Assembly (NCBI GenBank): GCA_016791105.1
Contig: JAEUNM010000054.1
Location: 1-64,000, forward strand
Direction: 5' to 3'
DNA length: 64,000 nt
DNA from: Rhodocyclaceae bacterium
GTDB lineage: Bacteria; Pseudomonadota; Gammaproteobacteria; Burkholderiales; Rhodocyclaceae
Positions 34,007 to 61,774 of the stretch are shown here, piece by piece (positions within the stretch are counted from its first letter, which is position 1; every line of letters begins with the position of its first letter). The position numbers and the translations under genes were made by a program. Under the pieces are notes generated by a model that made no database searches, had not been told where the DNA came from, and was given only the letters and a program-made list of their open reading frames with translations.

Positions 34007-35236
34007 CTAAATCCGCGCACCACTCGCTATGGACTGGGTACGGGGATCGTAGCCGCTCGACGGGGTCCTCGGACCGGTCCATACAGGGCTGATGCCCACG
34101 AGTCCGCGCTGGCTCCCCTCGCCGTACCGGGTGTCCACGTACCCCGTCCAGCCGATCCACCACGCCCCAGCCGGCAGGGCGCGGATGCGCACCATATCCG
34201 GCTCCGGATCGAGGCCAGGCACATCGCCAGGGAATGTACCGCCCATCGTGTCCCAGTACTGCACCACGGCCTGGTTGTGCGATGTGGTGTAGCGCTGCTC
34301 GACCATCAGCACGCTCCCCCCGCACGTCACGCGGCTGTACGTATAGACCTCGTTGAATTGGGAGCCATCATATGAGTGCTCCCAATGGTCATCGCTGACC
34401 ACCAGCACCGCCGAGGCGCCTGAGTACACCGCCCCCAGCGTTATTGTCTGGGTCCAATCCTGCTGTGCGCCACCGACACCTGATGAGTGCGACACGTAGC
34501 TCCAGCCGGCTGCGCCGCACTGCAGCGGTGTGAGCGACACGCCCGCGCCGGTCAGTGTGATCACACCGCACCAGCACGCCATATCTGTGCTGTACCAATC
34601 GTTGTGGCTGGCCGTGAGGTGGCCGTCAATGACCACCAGCCCGCTCTGCAGCGTCGGGTCGACGTGTAGAGTCAGCCCAGTGGGCACCAGGCGCCACGCC
34701 CTATAGGGCTCCGCCTGCGTGAAATCCTCATACGGCGCCCAGAACCACCCGAGTAGCCCGGCATCGAGAGTCCCCAGGGACACCGGCGCAGCCGCCGGAG
34801 CGCCGCCGATGCGGCCCCACTCCTGCGCCGTCAGATCCACATAGGCGTGGATGCCCCGCATCTGACTGCTGTGCGGGTCGGATATCCACTCCTCGGTCTG
34901 ACGCAGACTGCCGCTTACCCGCCAGATCGTGCCGGCCGGATCGCGCATCAGCGTGGATGCGCGGCCGATGCCGGCAGAGGACATCGGGCTGTAGCGCTTG
35001 GTCTGCCCGATCAGCACCGCATCGGGCATGAGCAGGCCGCCCTGCGCGGCCAGGTCCGCCGGTGTGCTCGGCGTGGGCATCCCGAGCGAGATGTAATGCA
35101 CGTGCTGGTCGGCGGGCGCGATCGCGCCGGGCAGTATCTGCCCGTTAGTCGCGAGGCGGAGCCCCTCCGACTCCCACGTGCCGTGCCAGGGCTGCCCCCA
35201 GGCGAGCAGGCTGCCAGGCAGCGGCGGGGCGGTCAT
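34007..35236 (-). CDS. Phage protein of unknown function, last gene of the prophage
   Basis: 409 aa, rich in Trp, Ser, Thr and Gly, with no signal peptide or helix. The beta-rich composition and position after the tail-tip genes suggest a tail-tip or adsorption structure. It ends within about 100 bp of the prophage boundary. I do not recognise a family; in Mu-like phages this right-end slot also carries host-adaptive genes. Its ATG overlaps the upstream stop (ATGA). Confidence 0.75.
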   Translation of the reverse strand: MTAPPLPGSLLAWGQPWHGTWESEGLRLATNGQILPGAIAPADQHVHYISLGMPTPSTPADLAAQGGLLMPDAVLIGQTKRYSPMSSAGIGRASTLMRDPAGTIWRVSGSLRQTEEWISDPHSSQMRGIHAYVDLTAQEWGRIGGAPAAAPVSLGTLDAGLLGWFWAPYEDFTQAEPYRAWRLVPTGLTLHVDPTLQSGLVVIDGHLTASHNDWYSTDMACWCGVITLTGAGVSLTPLQCGAAGWSYVSHSSGVGGAQQDWTQTITLGAVYSGASAVLVVSDDHWEHSYDGSQFNEVYTYSRVTCGGSVLMVEQRYTTSHNQAVVQYWDTMGGTFPGDVPGLDPEPDMVRIRALPAGAWWIGWTGYVDTRYGEGSQRGLVGISPVWTGPRTPSSGYDPRTQSIASGARI

Positions 35237-49829: not shown

Positions 49830-50324
49830 GCTATCTCCTGCTATCAGTTGCGTGAGGGCCGCGACGCGGGTGCCATCCGTCGCGGGCAAATTGGTCAGTC
49901 CAGCGCATACGAGGCCAGTGATCTGACAGTCGTCGTCATACGTGAACACGGGGCTGAGGAACTGGTATTCGCCGTCGCGGATCATTTGCGCGGCGCGGTC
50001 TGTCCACCGCAGGTCGGCAGTCACCAGGCCGACGCCTGGCCGGAATTCCATCTGCTGGAAGAACCCGGCCGCCGGTGCAGGGTGGCCGTTGTCCTTGGCA
50101 TTGAGCGTCTGGTGCTCGTAGTCGATTACATATGGCGTCCCCCGTCTGCGTCCATCGGCAATCAGCTGCGCCGCGGTCTGCTCGGTGCACTCCCAGTACT
50201 TGCCCGGCCCTGGCCGCCCGTCACGGGCGCGGAAACGACCGGCCGGCAGCAAGACAGCAAAGCCCGCCGCCGGCTCGGGAAGAGCAGCAAGGAAAGCACA
50301 CAGGGGGGCCGCGACTTTTGACAT
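49299..50324 (-). CDS. Mu gpI-type prohead protease fused to scaffold
   Basis: 341 aa. The N-terminal protease part has YVIDYEHQT, QFLSPVF and GLTNLPATDG, typical of gpI-family proteases. From about residue 166 the sequence is a coiled scaffold with AALKAAVAAAQ and a C-terminal KQLGIEPEK capsid-binding end. A second start inside produces the scaffold alone. Expected role: scaffolded head assembly followed by cleavage. Confidence 0.93.
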   Translation of the reverse strand: MSKVAAPLCAFLAALPEPAAGFAVLLPAGRFRARDGRPGPGKYWECTEQTAAQLIADGRRRGTPYVIDYEHQTLNAKDNGHPAPAAGFFQQMEFRPGVGLVTADLRWTDRAAQMIRDGEYQFLSPVFTYDDDCQITGLVCAGLTNLPATDGTRVAALTQLIAGDSMDIVQQLIALLGLAAGATPETILQAVQDLVSRAASTAACKTEHETQVAALKAAVAAAQSAAPDPTKFVPIGVMTEMQTRLAALTTQVQTDEGQRLIDAALNDGRLLPEQKVWAQTLAAVNVAHLKTYLASAKPLAILAGTQTAGKPPAGLQDKSAHSEEYLAVCKQLGIEPEKPAA

Positions 50325-55707: not shown

Positions 55708-57290
55708 TACCAGCTACCTCCGTAGGTGCCGACCGGGCCGGCGGTGTCGCCGGAATGCTCCGGATAGTCCGCCGCCCGCCCGCGCGGCGCGCGCTGCAGG
55801 TCCGCCGGCACCTCGATATAGTCGATCGGCGCGACATCGCGGCGCATCGCATTGCGCAGCATCATGTGCGCCACCAGCGCGTCGCCGTGCCGCCGCTGTT
55901 TCGGTGCATCCGCGCTGCGGGTGCGTGTGGCGGGCAATTTCGCGACGCCGTTGATTACCTGCAGCGCGCGGAAATCGTCGCGCGTGTCGCTGTCCCGCGG
56001 TATGCAGTCGTAGGTGCGGTCTTCCAGCGCGGTGCGGAATTTCGGCGCGCTATCTATCCACCACCCCTCGCTGATCTGCACCGCCGCGATGCGCGCGGCG
56101 CCGTATTTTTGCACCATGAATTCCGCGACCGCGGACCCATTGCCGCCGGCGTCGAAATCCGCCGCGCGAAACCGGGGCAGGCGGTCGATGATGTATTTGA
56201 GGATTTGCTCCTGCTGCCGATGCGGACAGCAGGACAACTCGATTTGCAGGCGCACGCGCACGCACTGATCGCGCCCCTCTTCGCCGACGACGTAGACGGA
56301 TAGGTCCGCGACACGGCCGAAATCCTCGCCCAGCCCATGTGGGCGGTCGGGGTCCAGGGCGTGCAGGATCGGCTGAACCTCCTCATCCAGCCAGGCCTGC
56401 ACTTCGGCGTGGCGGACCGCATCGGACGCGTGCGCGAATTCCGGCGACCATTCGCGGCGCAGTACAGGCGTATCCGGAGACTGGCGCGATTCGATGAGCG
56501 TAATGCTGAGGTAGCGCCCGCCGCTATTGGCGGGGATCGTATCCAGTTCTTCGGCCGCATCGGCGCCGTAAAATCGGCGCACGTCGGCTACCCAGGCATC
56601 CTGGCCGGCTTGGGTCCAGGGAATTCCTTTGCGCAGGCATACGCGTACGTACAGGCCATCACTTACGGCCTGCTCGAATGTGATTTTGTGCACCTGGCCA
56701 CCGCGGCGACCGCCGCGAATGTCCTGGATCAGTTGGTTGAATGGGTTTTCCACGCCGTTGTGCGTCGAGAGCACTCGCACGCTGGCACCCCACATCAGCA
56801 TCGCCATTGCCGCTTTGAGCAGGCCCGGCAGGTCTGGCCCAAACGCGGCCTCGTCCAACACGATCGTGCCTTGCTTGCCGCGGAGGTTGGCCGGGCGCGA
56901 GGACAGCGCGACCACCCGCTTGTCGGATGGGTAGGCGATCTTGAACGTCTTGACTGTCTTACCGTCCAGATCGACGAGATCATCATCGCCCTCGCCGATT
57001 TCCGACGCAGCCAGCGCGAACGCGCGCGACCACATGGCCACGGCCTCGATGTACTCGATTGCCATGTCCTGCGCGGCGGAAATGTAGAACACGTTGTGGC
57101 CGTCGCGCACGCTGGCGATCAGGGCATCATCAGCGGCTTCGGCCCATGTCAGGCCGATGCGGCGCGATTTTTCGACCACCTTCACCGGCGATTTGTCGGC
57201 CACCCAGCGCTGCTGATACGGCAGCAGCGCCGGTGGCGGCGCCCCCTCGGCGACGCGAGCATTGAGCAGGTCGACGAGCGGATTGCTCAC
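55707..57290 (-). CDS. Mu gp28-like large terminase
   Basis: 527-aa packaging motor. The ATPase has the gp28-type P-loop VEKSRRIGLT (residues 39-48) and Walker B TIVLDEAAF. The C-terminal nuclease region has FRAADFDAGGNG and a late HGDALVAHMM. I chose the GTG at 57290 (overlap GTGA with gp27), because the frame upstream is a gp27 shadow. Confidence 0.95.
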   Translation of the reverse strand: MSNPLVDLLNARVAEGAPPPALLPYQQRWVADKSPVKVVEKSRRIGLTWAEAADDALIASVRDGHNVFYISAAQDMAIEYIEAVAMWSRAFALAASEIGEGDDDLVDLDGKTVKTFKIAYPSDKRVVALSSRPANLRGKQGTIVLDEAAFGPDLPGLLKAAMAMLMWGASVRVLSTHNGVENPFNQLIQDIRGGRRGGQVHKITFEQAVSDGLYVRVCLRKGIPWTQAGQDAWVADVRRFYGADAAEELDTIPANSGGRYLSITLIESRQSPDTPVLRREWSPEFAHASDAVRHAEVQAWLDEEVQPILHALDPDRPHGLGEDFGRVADLSVYVVGEEGRDQCVRVRLQIELSCCPHRQQEQILKYIIDRLPRFRAADFDAGGNGSAVAEFMVQKYGAARIAAVQISEGWWIDSAPKFRTALEDRTYDCIPRDSDTRDDFRALQVINGVAKLPATRTRSADAPKQRRHGDALVAHMMLRNAMRRDVAPIDYIEVPADLQRAPRGRAADYPEHSGDTAGPVGTYGGSW

Positions 57291-58874: not shown

Positions 58875-59098
58875 CAGTGCCGCGTCCCGCAGCCGCGCAT
58901 ATCGTCGGCGACAAAATCCAGCACACCCAGCACGTAGTGCGCGCCGTAGCGCTGCCGCATCGCAGTGGCCGCGACGCACAGCATGCCCATCAGGTGGGCG
59001 CGCGTGTCATCAGGAGACAGGCCCGCGACCTGCGTTTCGAGGTCCGCAAGCGCGGCAATCAGAGGGTCCGGGGCCTGCGGGAGGGTGTGCGCATCCAT
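58874..59098 (-). CDS. Small phage hypothetical protein, 74 aa
   Basis: Begins MDAHTLPQAPDPLIAALADLE; all-helical. It is the first gene of the late minus-strand run, preceded by the divergent 182-bp control region. The longer frame to 59233 crosses the plus-strand promoter and is not used. Confidence 0.65.
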   Translation of the reverse strand: MDAHTLPQAPDPLIAALADLETQVAGLSPDDTRAHLMGMLCVAATAMRQRYGAHYVLGVLDFVADDMRGCGTRH

Positions 59099-59181: not shown

Positions 59182-59209
59182 TTGACATACACCGTATGCG
59201 GTGTATAGT
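59182..59209 (+). promoter_or_regulatory. Sigma-70 promoter of the acr-like operon
   Basis: TTGACA (59182-59187), a 16-bp spacer and TATAGT (59204-59209). It is the strongest promoter text in the prophage part. The first gene starts at 59281 behind AAGGAG. Most of the spacer lies within an inverted repeat, so a repressor bound there would block RNA polymerase. Confidence 0.85.
59187..59206. promoter_or_regulatory. Palindromic operator overlapping the promoter
   Basis: ATACACCGTATGCGGTGTAT: 8-bp arms ATACACCG/CGGTGTAT around TATG. It touches both the -35 and -10 hexamers. The HTH protein encoded at the operon end (60718-60960) is the natural candidate to bind it. Confidence 0.82.
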
Positions 59210-59280
59210 ACGAATTGTGCACGACGCACACACACCCGCCGGCGGTGAGTAGCCGGCAAAAATCTCGGAAGGAGATTGTC

Positions 59281-59667
59281 ATGGCTAGTTTCGCCGCCAC
59301 CTATGATCGCAAGTCGAGCCCGGATGATGGCCCGCTGATCAACCACATCGTGTCCGAATTCGCCGCCGGCCGCTGGACCGTGCAAAAAGTGACGCGCAAC
59401 AAGGGCGCTGCTACCAAGCTCGTAAAAAAATTGGTCGCACAGGGAAGTTTGGTGTGGGTGCGGCACCCCACCCAGGCGGACGAATATTTCGGCCCCATTA
59501 AATACGCCCATTTCACGAACTTCGGATGCTCCATCGCGCCCCATGAGGCGGATAGCGAAGGATTCCTGCGTTTCCGCGACGGATTCCAGGTTTTGCCGGC
59601 ATCTGTCTGGACGCGCGCTGAACTGTGGGTAGATCAGGCGGAAGCCGCCGTCTGCCGTCGCCGCTGA
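59281..59667 (+). CDS. Unknown 128-aa protein, first gene of the acr-like operon
   Basis: MASFAATYDRKSSPDDGPLI then NHIVSEFAAGRWTVQKVTRN, KGAATKLVKKLVAQGSLVWV and a C-terminal WTRAELWVDQAEAA. The centre could be a winged helix. AAGGAG at 59269-59274 gives a textbook start. I recognise no family. Its place ahead of an AcrVA2-like gene under one repressible promoter makes it a candidate anti-defence protein by association only. Confidence 0.8.
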   Translation: MASFAATYDRKSSPDDGPLINHIVSEFAAGRWTVQKVTRNKGAATKLVKKLVAQGSLVWVRHPTQADEYFGPIKYAHFTNFGCSIAPHEADSEGFLRFRDGFQVLPASVWTRAELWVDQAEAAVCRRR

Positions 59668-59698
59668 CCCCGCCGCGCCCCGCAAGGGGCGCCATCCC

Positions 59699-60721
59699 AT
59701 GTCCGCCAAATTCCCCCCCCGCATCCACCCCGCCCAGTCCGCCATGCGCGCCTGGGCGGCCACACAGCCGCCGGACATCTGGCAGCGCGTCGAAGCGGCG
59801 CGCGTCGACAGCGCCGCGGCGCGCGACGCACGCTATTACGCGCGGCATGCCGAAATTTGCGGCGTCATCCCGCGTCGCGGCGCGCTCGAAACCTGGGCAA
59901 CGGATGTCGCACTGGCGTCCGGCTGGTCGGCCTGGCGCATGACGCAGGGCATCTACCGCTACGATCCGCCGGTGTATGAGGCCGTGCGCAGCACGCCTAT
60001 CGAGCGCATTCCGGTCGATGTGCTCGATACCATGCCGGAATGGGCGGTAGTGATCGACACGCCCGACTGGGCGCCCGCGCTGACCGCCGGTGCGCCGTGC
60101 CCGGCCGTCATGCTGTGGCGCAACACCCTGATGGAAGGCAGCGCGGAGGTGCTGATGGCCGTTCTGCTGGCCGGACGCCAGGGCGAGATCGACTATGACC
60201 GCGAGGTGCTCGTGCTGCCGCTCGCGGGCACGCTGGATGAGGTCATTGCGCGGCGCATCGCCGAGGCGGATACCAGCGCGCGCCTGCTCGGCACCGCGGC
60301 CGTTACGGCGTCCGAAGCGGACGCGCTGCGCGATGCGCTGCCGCCGCTCCTAAATCTCCTGCTCTACCTGTGCAGCCAGGCCGCCGATATTAGCGGACGG
60401 GGTGCGCCTGGCAATCCAGCCCCAGTGCGCACGCGACGCGATGGCTGGCGCCTGTTTCCGGCGCCCGGGCCACGCACCTGGGAGGTCGGCACGCGCATGG
60501 GGGCTGCGCTGCGCGCGGCCTACCAGGCGAGGGAGATCGGCGCCGAGGCGCCAGGCGCCACCCCGCGGCCCCATGTGCGCCGCGCGCACTGGCACGGCTA
60601 TTGGACTGGCGCGCGTGCCAATGGGCCGGCGCGCCGCTTCGACTTGCGCTGGCTGCCGCCCATCGGGGTCGGCATGGCCCTCGGTGATGGCGGGCCGTCC
60701 GTGATACGGCCAGTCAAATGA
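59699..60721 (+). CDS. AcrVA2-like anti-CRISPR protein
   Basis: 340 aa. It matches AcrVA2 as I recall it at several sites: AWRMTQGIY (78-86; AcrVA2 AWRNTLGIY), a W-x-V-x-x-D stretch after a P-D/E-W, LLxLLLYLC with ADIS (AcrVA2 LLPYLLWLC, PDIT), and RPHVRRAHWHGYW (290-302; AcrVA2 RPHIRRGHWHGYW) followed by F-x-x-RW. AcrVA2 blocks Cas12a production by binding the nascent N-terminus and removing its mRNA. The target in this host is unknown. The stop overlaps the next ATG (ATGA). Confidence 0.85.
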   Translation: MSAKFPPRIHPAQSAMRAWAATQPPDIWQRVEAARVDSAAARDARYYARHAEICGVIPRRGALETWATDVALASGWSAWRMTQGIYRYDPPVYEAVRSTPIERIPVDVLDTMPEWAVVIDTPDWAPALTAGAPCPAVMLWRNTLMEGSAEVLMAVLLAGRQGEIDYDREVLVLPLAGTLDEVIARRIAEADTSARLLGTAAVTASEADALRDALPPLLNLLLYLCSQAADISGRGAPGNPAPVRTRRDGWRLFPAPGPRTWEVGTRMGAALRAAYQAREIGAEAPGATPRPHVRRAHWHGYWTGARANGPARRFDLRWLPPIGVGMALGDGGPSVIRPVK

Positions 60722-60960
60722 GCCCGCGGCAATTCGCTGCGCTGGCCCGTGTCAAATTGGGGCTGCCTTCGGATGCGGCGCTGCCGGCGCTGGCGCCGTC
60801 CGTTCAAGCCGCACGGCTCATGCTCGTGGACGGCCTGGCCAACAACGATGCCGCCCGCCTGGCTGGTGTCACGCCGCAGGCGGCGGCCAACGCGCGGCGA
60901 AAATATCTCGACGCCTGGCACGCCATTGCAGCAGCCGGCCCCTGGGACGGGGCAGGCTGA
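60718..60960 (+). CDS. KorA/TrfB-like HTH protein, candidate Aca regulator
   Basis: 80 aa. The stretch AARLMLVDGLANNDAARLAG, followed by VTPQAAANARRKYL, has the HTH layout of KorA/TrfB plasmid repressors. It is coupled to the AcrVA2-like gene by an ATGA overlap, just as aca repressors follow acr genes. I infer that it represses the promoter at 59182 through the 20-bp palindrome. Confidence 0.8.
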   Translation: MSPRQFAALARVKLGLPSDAALPALAPSVQAARLMLVDGLANNDAARLAGVTPQAAANARRKYLDAWHAIAAAGPWDGAG

Positions 60961-61307: not shown

Positions 61308-61774
61308 CAGCGGCACTCCCGGTCGATACGGCCGCCATAGCTGGCCGCCTGCGCCTTGTAGTAGTTGTACATGTCTGCGCGCGCCCCGGCGCGCATGCGC
61401 TCGTTGAAGTAGTCCAGTTGCGCCTGGTAGTCGGAACACCGAGCGCGTTGCGCATCCGCGGCTATCTGCCGGTAGGGCTCATTGGCCGCGCGTTGCACGC
61501 GCACTTGCTGGTCTCCCGCAGCCTCCAGCCGCCGCTCATATTCCTGCTGCCGCAGCGCCCGCGCCGTGGCCGGGTCGGGCTGGCCATAGGCCGCGCCGGC
61601 GTGGCCCGCGGCGGGCCGCGAATCGACCACAGTAGCCTGGGCGCCGGCCGGGCAGGGCGCATCCGAAAACACGGTGCGCCCATCTGCCCCCTTGCATTTG
61701 TACACTTGGGCGGTCGCACCCACGGCTGCCAACGCGAGTAACGCGCCGGCCATCCAACGTATGAATTTCCGCAT
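61307..61774 (-). CDS. DUF4124-type exported protein
   Basis: 155 aa. A signal peptide (ending ATAQ) is followed by VYKCKGADGRTVFSDAPCPAG, the DUF4124 motif of periplasmic proteins, then a charged helical tail with two more Cys. AAGGAG precedes the ATG. Role in the prophage unknown; a host-derived passenger is possible. Confidence 0.8.
   Translation of the reverse strand: MRKFIRWMAGALLALAAVGATAQVYKCKGADGRTVFSDAPCPAGAQATVVDSRPAAGHAGAAYGQPDPATARALRQQEYERRLEAAGDQQVRVQRAANEPYRQIAADAQRARCSDYQAQLDYFNERMRAGARADMYNYYKAQAASYGGRIDRECR

What the first reader, a model, noticed from the sequence alone, without database searches (positions are those of the whole stretch)
59182..60960. Candidate acr-aca operon in a transposable prophage: unknown ORF, AcrVA2-like gene, KorA-like HTH
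Seen: one promoter with a palindromic operator, then three plus-strand genes against the late-gene strand. The second matches AcrVA2 at its best-conserved parts (AWRxTxGIY; RPHxRRxHWHGYW). The third is a small HTH protein joined by an ATGA overlap. Known: AcrVA2 stops Cas12a production; acr genes are often followed by aca repressors that bind inverted repeats in the acr promoter. Inference: this is a self-controlled anti-defence operon with a KorA/TrfB-type Aca, a pairing I have not met. Betaproteobacteria seldom carry Cas12a, so the target may differ.
Basis: partly seen in the sequence, partly recalled or inferred. Interest (0 to 1): 0.95.

Follow-up and report, generated by a model that had tools for sequence, protein, structure and literature searches.

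The report
Self-regulated AcrVA2-type anti-CRISPR prophage operon
A prophage carries a three-gene operon with a relative of the anti-CRISPR protein AcrVA2 and a small KorA-like gene that is predicted to switch the operon off; because the host's own type I-G CRISPR array holds spacers matching this very prophage, the operon is likely what keeps that immune system from attacking it.

Summary

Three things go beyond the finding. (1) The host has no detected Cas12a but a type I-G CRISPR-Cas locus and 92 spacers. Three match this prophage at every base but the first, two more with 3-4 mismatches. Such self-targeting predicts an inhibitor in the prophage; this operon is the leading candidate. (2) Small ORFs behind AcrVA2-family genes match DNA-binding families more often than controls, and KorA-like ones recur. 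(3) ORF1 sits behind a structured 5' leader (variable hairpin, CCGGC-GGTGAGTA-GCCGG hairpin, Shine-Dalgarno hairpin) that recurs upstream of AcrVA2 relatives and before mostly unrelated small genes, shows covariation and has no Rfam match.

Against: csx17 (type I-G) was found in none of 50 other genomes with AcrVA2 relatives; inhibition, repression and RNA function are untested. New variant of a known kind.

The parts
59182..59209 (+). Core promoter: -35 TTGACA 59182-59187, -10 TATAGT 59204-59209
   Evidence: Sequence
59187..59206 (.). Inverted repeat ATACACCG-TATG-CGGTGTAT, predicted operator of ORF3
   Evidence: Perfect 8+8 bp, p 0.016 against shuffles; binding untested
59204..59283 (+). Structured 5' leader as found by covariance model R1 (ends at the ORF1 start codon)
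   Evidence: cmsearch 70.8 bits, the only hit at E <= 0.001 in the 5.1 Mb genome; this sequence is one of the 22 the model was built from
59216..59230 (+). Leader hairpin P1 (TGTGC-ACGAC-GCACA)
   Evidence: Sequence; P1 stem conserved with changing sequence in other leaders
59233..59236 (+). CACC, could pair with GGTG at 59244-59247 (H-type pseudoknot with P2)
   Evidence: 96.6% of cells paired in 22 leaders, no covariation
59239..59256 (+). Leader hairpin P2 CCGGC-GGTGAGTA-GCCGG
   Evidence: 99% of cells paired, one double change and wobbles
59261..59277 (+). Leader hairpin P3 AATCTC-GGAAG-GAGATT holding the Shine-Dalgarno sequence
   Evidence: Sequence; 71% of cells paired, double changes at three pairs
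59281..59667 (+). ORF1, 128 aa, orphan; possible second anti-defence protein
   Evidence: No Pfam, NCBIfam or significant PHROG/PADLOC match; no relative but itself in the protein search
59699..60721 (+). ORF2, 340 aa, AcrVA2-family protein
60718..60960 (+). ORF3, 80 aa, KorA-like helix-turn-helix protein, predicted repressor
   Evidence: Pfam KORA E 0.012; KorA chains best in Foldseek
34443..34480 (+). Protospacer of host spacer 30 (37 of 38 bases, preceded by GTT)
58954..58991 (-). Protospacer of host spacer 52 (37 of 38 bases, preceded by CCT)
61358..61397 (+). Protospacer of host spacer 73 (39 of 40 bases, preceded by CTT)
56702..56739 (-). Likely protospacer of host spacer 8 (3 mismatches, preceded by ATT)
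50202..50240 (+). Likely protospacer of host spacer 71 (4 mismatches, preceded by CTT)

Best explanation
This is a three-gene prophage operon whose middle gene encodes a relative of the anti-CRISPR protein AcrVA2; it likely inhibits the host's own type I-G CRISPR-Cas system, whose array holds spacers that match this prophage, and the last gene, KorA-like, is predicted to repress the operon at the inverted repeat in its promoter. Shown: AcrVA2 homology and predicted fold, operon anatomy, inverted repeat, recurrent structured leader, type I-G locus, self-matching spacers. Inferred: the promoter fires on entry before the repressor builds up. The leader RNA folds and tunes translation of the first gene through its Shine-Dalgarno hairpin. 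ORF2 acts as known AcrVA2 does, recognising a nascent Cas chain and lowering its mRNA, here a type I-G subunit instead of Cas12a. ORF3 then shuts the promoter, leaving enough protein for a stable lysogen. ORF1 may be a second anti-defence protein.
For: AcrVA2 homology and fold. Type I-G locus, each of five cas genes over its NCBIfam cut-off, 93 repeats, a Cas2-like ORF by eye. Of 92 spacers three match the prophage at all bases but the first and two with 3 and 4 mismatches. Five of six protospacers (one of them on contig C96) are preceded by TT, fitting the TTN PAM of type I-G (PMC9638904, passages). Host genes lie on the prophage's contig on both sides, so it is integrated. KorA-like genes directly behind AcrVA2 relatives in L085 and L134. 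Small ORFs behind AcrVA2 genes match DNA-binding families more often than control ORFs. Promoter repeats over 19 leader promoters exceed shuffles (0 of 500).
Against: csx17 in 0 of 50 other AcrVA2-bearing genomes, so the family is not dedicated to type I-G. Cas12a in 0 of 50 too (no positive control rang in either), and Cas1 in only 30 of 50, so some relatives may not act on CRISPR at all. The Cas12a epitope LSKT has no match (L[ST][KR][TS]) in the five type I-G proteins. ORF3 is below the KORA cut-off and KorA ties with FocB in VIA-align. In 6 of 19 leader promoters, including L179 with a KorA-like gene, the repeat is no better than chance (p 0.4 or more), and L177, whose regulator looks like an XRE type by eye, has a repeat close to the window's. 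Array and prophage are on different contigs. Another prophage gene could be the inhibitor.
Confidence: 0.45

Rival explanations
1. ORF2 is an AcrVA2-family protein whose real target is not a CRISPR effector but another defence or host protein recognised as it is being made; the self-targeting is tolerated because of another inhibitor in the prophage or because the CRISPR system is off.
For: Cas1 was not detected in 20 of 50 other AcrVA2 hosts; csx17 and Cas12a in 0 of 50. The prophage holds many genes of unknown function.
Against: The only studied member is an anti-CRISPR (PMC13131331, passages), and this host does self-target the prophage.
Confidence: 0.25
2. ORF2 is an ordinary Cas12a inhibitor kept for other hosts of a broad-range phage and does nothing to type I-G.
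For: Clear AcrVA2 fold with the two best-conserved motifs.
Against: Only 20-21% identity to AcrVA2 in the structural alignment; no Cas12a detected in the host or in 50 other hosts of relatives (no positive control rang).
Confidence: 0.12
3. No inhibitor is needed: the CRISPR system is silent, or array and prophage come from different cells of a population.
For: The genome is in 147 contigs and array (C71) and prophage (C11) are on different contigs; whether it is an isolate or a metagenome bin is not told.
Against: Five cas genes are open and over their cut-offs; 89 of 93 repeats match the query repeat exactly and 4 have one mismatch; completeness 98.68%, contamination 0.64%.
Confidence: 0.18

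Closest known systems
AcrVA2 (PDB 7ci1, 7ci2)
   Same: Homologous sequence, fold and conserved motifs.
   Different: About 20% identity; host with type I-G and no detected Cas12a; here in an operon with a KorA-like gene and a structured leader.
Aca4 and other Aca repressors (PMC9410906, passages)
   Same: Small helix-turn-helix protein in the acr operon, inverted repeat inside the core promoter; Aca4 also matches KORA/TrfB.
   Different: Aca4 was reported from Pseudomonas with type I-F inhibitors; ORF3 has no relative but itself in our protein search, and repression is untested.
KorA/TrfB of RK2 and ArdK of R388
   Same: Predicted helix-turn-helix fold; KorA and ArdK chains among the best structural matches.
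   Different: 80 aa; sequence match below the KORA cut-off; ties with FocB in VIA-align; phage operon, different palindrome (RK2 operator sequence recalled).
Shewanella phage vB_SbaS_Y11 ORF43 (PMC10846135, passages)
   Same: Putative AcrVA2 relative in a phage of a genus in which the paper describes type I-E, with an HTH gene (ORF47) elsewhere in the genome.
   Different: No KorA-like partner, leader or self-targeting in the passages seen.
RNA control of acr operons by Aca2 (recalled; not found in the library)
   Same: Structured acr mRNA around the ribosome binding site.
   Different: Here the leader stays nearly constant while linked regulators and promoter repeats change, so no single regulator is likely to read it in all loci.

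Membership tests
AcrVA2 family | Sequence homology to AcrVA2 | tested here: met
   phmmer E 5.2e-18 to 7ci1; two relatives carry the name AcrVA2 family
AcrVA2 family | AcrVA2 fold | tested here: met
AcrVA2 family | Lowers Cas12a production | not testable with these tools
   Needs an experiment; no Cas12a detected in the host (no positive control rang)
Aca (anti-CRISPR-associated repressor) | Small HTH gene in the same operon as an acr gene | tested here: met
   80 aa, ATGA overlap with ORF2, four-helix HTH-like model
Aca (anti-CRISPR-associated repressor) | Inverted repeat within the core promoter | tested here: met
   8+8 bp at 59187-59206 between and over the -35/-10
Aca (anti-CRISPR-associated repressor) | Represses the acr promoter | not testable with these tools
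   Needs gel shift or reporter
Aca (anti-CRISPR-associated repressor) | Homology to a named Aca family (Aca1-Aca10) | not tested
   No Aca models or sequences were used; PADLOC and NCBIfam gave no match for ORF3
KorA/TrfB (Pfam KORA PF16509) | KORA profile match over the curated cut-off | tested here: not met
   16.2 bits against 26.7; its relatives L085 (28.3) and L134 (37.6) pass
KorA/TrfB (Pfam KORA PF16509) | KorA fold | tested here: inconclusive
Known Rfam leader or riboswitch | Match to an Rfam family | tested here: not met
   Nothing over the leader at E <= 10 in the window region, nor over leaders of six other loci at E <= 1
Structured RNA leader | Base pairs kept through changes on both sides | tested here: met
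   Covariation score 0.165 against 0.101 in shuffles, 0 of 500; P1 stem score 0 of 2000. RNAalifold alone predicts only P2
Type I-G anti-CRISPR | Blocks type I-G interference | not testable with these tools
   Only indirect: self-targeting spacers beside a type I-G locus

The most novel reading that the evidence does not exclude
This prophage operon encodes the first inhibitor of a type I-G CRISPR system, an AcrVA2-family protein that silences a Cas subunit as it is being translated. It is driven by a mobile regulatory cassette, made of an operator-promoter, a new structured RNA leader and an exchangeable small repressor, that marks anti-defence genes across phages and plasmids.
Probability: 0.25. 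Interest if true: 0.92.

Novelty: new variant of a known kind. Interest (0 to 1): 0.8.

Why it matters
AcrVA2 relatives are spread over phages of bacteria in which we detected no Cas12a, so what the family targets is an open question. Here is a natural test case: a type I-G system with spacers against the very prophage that carries the gene. No type I-G inhibitor came up in our paper searches (listings only, plus passages of PMC9638904). The leader could serve as a search tag: it stands before mostly unrelated small genes, which would be candidates for new anti-defence proteins. That regulators change while the leader stays would show how phages rewire the control of such genes.

Tried and rejected
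Rejected: that the leader is a general phage or host feature. Its exact core is in 1 of 369 genomes of the class (this one) and in 13 viral contigs of about 2.9 million, 8 with an AcrVA2 relative. Rejected: that most matches of a looser pattern are leaders. Of 67 stretches I judged by eye that those with 5 of 5 P2 pairs, and L208 with 4, are leaders and the rest chance. Rejected: that AcrVA2 relatives go with type I-G in general (0 of 50).

Led nowhere: blastn of leaders against phages and plasmids gave one convincing site, on an Ahniella plasmid. ORF1 and ORF3 found no relative but themselves in the large protein search. The KorA-like alignment was too variable for a locus search. A ribbon-helix-helix nature of the proteins behind AcrVA2 in L037, L102, L104 and L114 was my reading by eye and Pfam did not back it. 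Weak leader hits (E above 0.05) may partly reflect an ordinary Shine-Dalgarno plus ATG on the coding strand and are not counted as proof. Folded alone, the window's leader is only mildly more stable than shuffles (z -1.9, 12 of 200 as good) and its best fold is not the P1-P2-P3 one throughout.

Full report

Partners of AcrVA2 relatives. I held 167 loci (L001-L167) with an AcrVA2-family gene (gene located in all 167). After leaving out 22 loci by hand (near-duplicates and the truncated L002) and genes within 300 bases of a locus end, 143 were tested, and 62 had a distinct small co-directional ORF starting from -20 to +30 of the stop. Pfam matches at E <= 0.05 in the 62: HTH_31 in 9, HTH_3 in 7, HTH_23 in 5, KORA in 3, RHH_1 in 2. 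These overlap (L085 matches both KORA and HTH_31), so I count about 13 or more distinct proteins. The control was 62 of the 117 small ORFs found behind 345 other long ORFs of the same loci: HTH_31 in 1, RHH_1 in 1, and single members for a few other DNA-binding families. Such an ORF was about as common in both sets (62 of 143, 117 of 345), and starts at -4 or -1 were 23 of 62 against 36 of 117, so the overlap itself is not special. KorA-like proteins lie directly behind AcrVA2 genes in L085 and L134 (over the KORA cut-off), upstream of one in L100, and behind a leader without an AcrVA2 gene in L179; in the last two KORA is the best hit but below the cut-off. A 2019 survey reported 0% of RefSeq AcrVA2 homologs with a neighbouring Aca homolog (PMC6739104, passages). 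KorA-type Acas are known: Aca4 (PMC9410906, passages).

The leader. The 5' untranslated region recurs. GGTGnGTAGCC occurs 19 times on the plus strand before (or within 200 bases of the start of) the AcrVA2 gene, in 15 of 167 loci, never further downstream, and 4 times on the other strand; one site (L157) looks like chance and three of the 15 loci are near-duplicates. The exact core CCGGYGGTGAGTAGCCGG is in 13 of about 2.9 million viral contigs; 8 of these carry an AcrVA2 relative and 5 do not in the DNA fetched. AcrVA2 relatives themselves were found at 92 places there, so the link is far from chance, although the pattern was taken from AcrVA2 loci. Twenty-two leaders were aligned (A2). P1 changes its sequence but keeps a stem: summed stem score 228 against 112.9 +- 13.2, 0 of 2000 shuffles as high, over 20 sequences (L169 and L240 not included; L103 lacks P1). 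On A2 the 18 pairs have a covariation score of 0.165 against 0.101 +- 0.014 (0 of 500). P1 pairs in only 61% of cells because the alignment is not in register there. P2 pairs in 99% with one double change and wobbles, CACC:GGTG in 96.6% without covariation, P3 in 71% with double changes at three pairs. RNAalifold alone predicts only P2, and the window's leader folded alone is only mildly more stable than shuffles (z -1.9). A covariance model finds sites not used to build it: L106 second copy (E 4e-9), L026 (6e-8), L037 (8e-4), L019 (0.0025 and 0.009) and weaker ones. Of 18 such non-redundant hits up to E 10, 17 are on the plus strand and 14 of these upstream of the AcrVA2 gene, but a Shine-Dalgarno plus ATG alone could cause part of that. 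By eye some weak hits show a second leader form with CCGGCGGAACCCGG and the same P3; its exact motif is in 3 viral contigs, all AcrVA2 contigs from which it was taken. The leader stands before mostly unrelated small genes (34 compared, 3 related pairs), once after the AcrVA2 gene (L019), and on an Ahniella plasmid. Rfam has no match over it. No held paper contains GGTGAGTAGCCGG.

Promoter repeats. Over 19 leader promoters the best inverted repeats sum to 120 arm bases against 76.7 +- 7.4 in shuffles (0 of 500). L036a/b and L097/L169 are not independent, and in 6 of 19 (L017, L031, L096, L170, L179, L181) the repeat is no better than chance. Arms differ between loci, for instance CACGAACA, AGTACGGA, GAATAAT and ATACACCG, as expected of operators for different repressors. 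Against a simple match of repeat and regulator: L177, whose regulator looks XRE-like by eye, has ATACACG-GAAAT-CGTGTAT, close to the window's, while L179 with a KorA-like gene has only a weak repeat.

The host. No Cas12a was detected (the control rang nowhere, so this is weak). The genome has a type I-G locus, each of five genes over its NCBIfam cut-off: cas3g, csx17, cas7g, csb2 and a cas4g-cas1g fusion. By eye a Cas2-like ORF lies between it and the array. The array has 93 repeats. Of 92 spacers, three (30, 52, 73) match the prophage at every base but the first and two (8, 71) with 3 and 4 mismatches; a sixth (81) matches contig C96, which carries a truncated AcrVA2 relative, with 3. Five of these six have TT before the first base, in line with the TTN PAM of type I-G (PMC9638904, passages); spacer 52 has CT. 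No other match with up to 8 mismatches was found in C11 (123 kb), C96 or 13 kb of C71. Self-targeting beside a cas locus is a usual sign of an inhibitor (recalled practice; one such approach is the subject of PMC6739104).

How it likely works. Known AcrVA2 recognises the nascent N-terminus of Cas12a (LSKT) and causes loss of its mRNA (review PMC13131331, passages). I infer the same act on a type I-G subunit; a simple pattern for LSKT has no match in the five type I-G proteins, so the epitope would differ. ORF3 would repress through the palindrome. The leader, constant while regulators change, would tune translation of the first gene.

Limits. Inhibition, repression and RNA function were not tested. 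csx17 and Cas12a were each found in 0 of 50 other AcrVA2 host genomes (50 of the 77 loci listed; no positive control rang, though the csx17 model does hit this host), and Cas1 in 30 of 50. Relatives therefore probably have several targets, or targets outside CRISPR.

Noticed in passing
L002 881-1420 (G000 contig C96): A second, truncated AcrVA2 relative (57% identity over residues 67-124 of ORF2) beside a terminase-like gene on another phage contig of the same genome; C96 is also matched by host spacer 81 with 3 mismatches.
   Followed up: partly
L240 3971-4052 (Ahniella affigens plasmid NZ_CP027861.1): The leader stands right before a 213-aa hypothetical protein on a plasmid; this protein is related to the leader-linked protein of L041.
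   Followed up: partly
L019 4065-4139 and 5922-5996; L005, L114, L124, L110, L120, L125: A second leader form with another P2 hairpin but the same Shine-Dalgarno hairpin, before small genes near AcrVA2 relatives.
   Followed up: partly
L179 6499-6774 (minus strand): A KorA-like gene behind a leader without an AcrVA2 gene in the fetched DNA: the promoter-leader-regulator cassette can occur alone.
   Followed up: partly
window 59699-60721: The protein database lists Pfam PF26125 for ORF2 and its listed relatives, but the local Pfam-A copy reports no family for it.
   Followed up: no
L245 9176-10195 (C11 about 71.2-72.2 kb): A DUF5131 (phrog_2045) gene in the early-gene side of the prophage contig, function unknown.
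   Followed up: no
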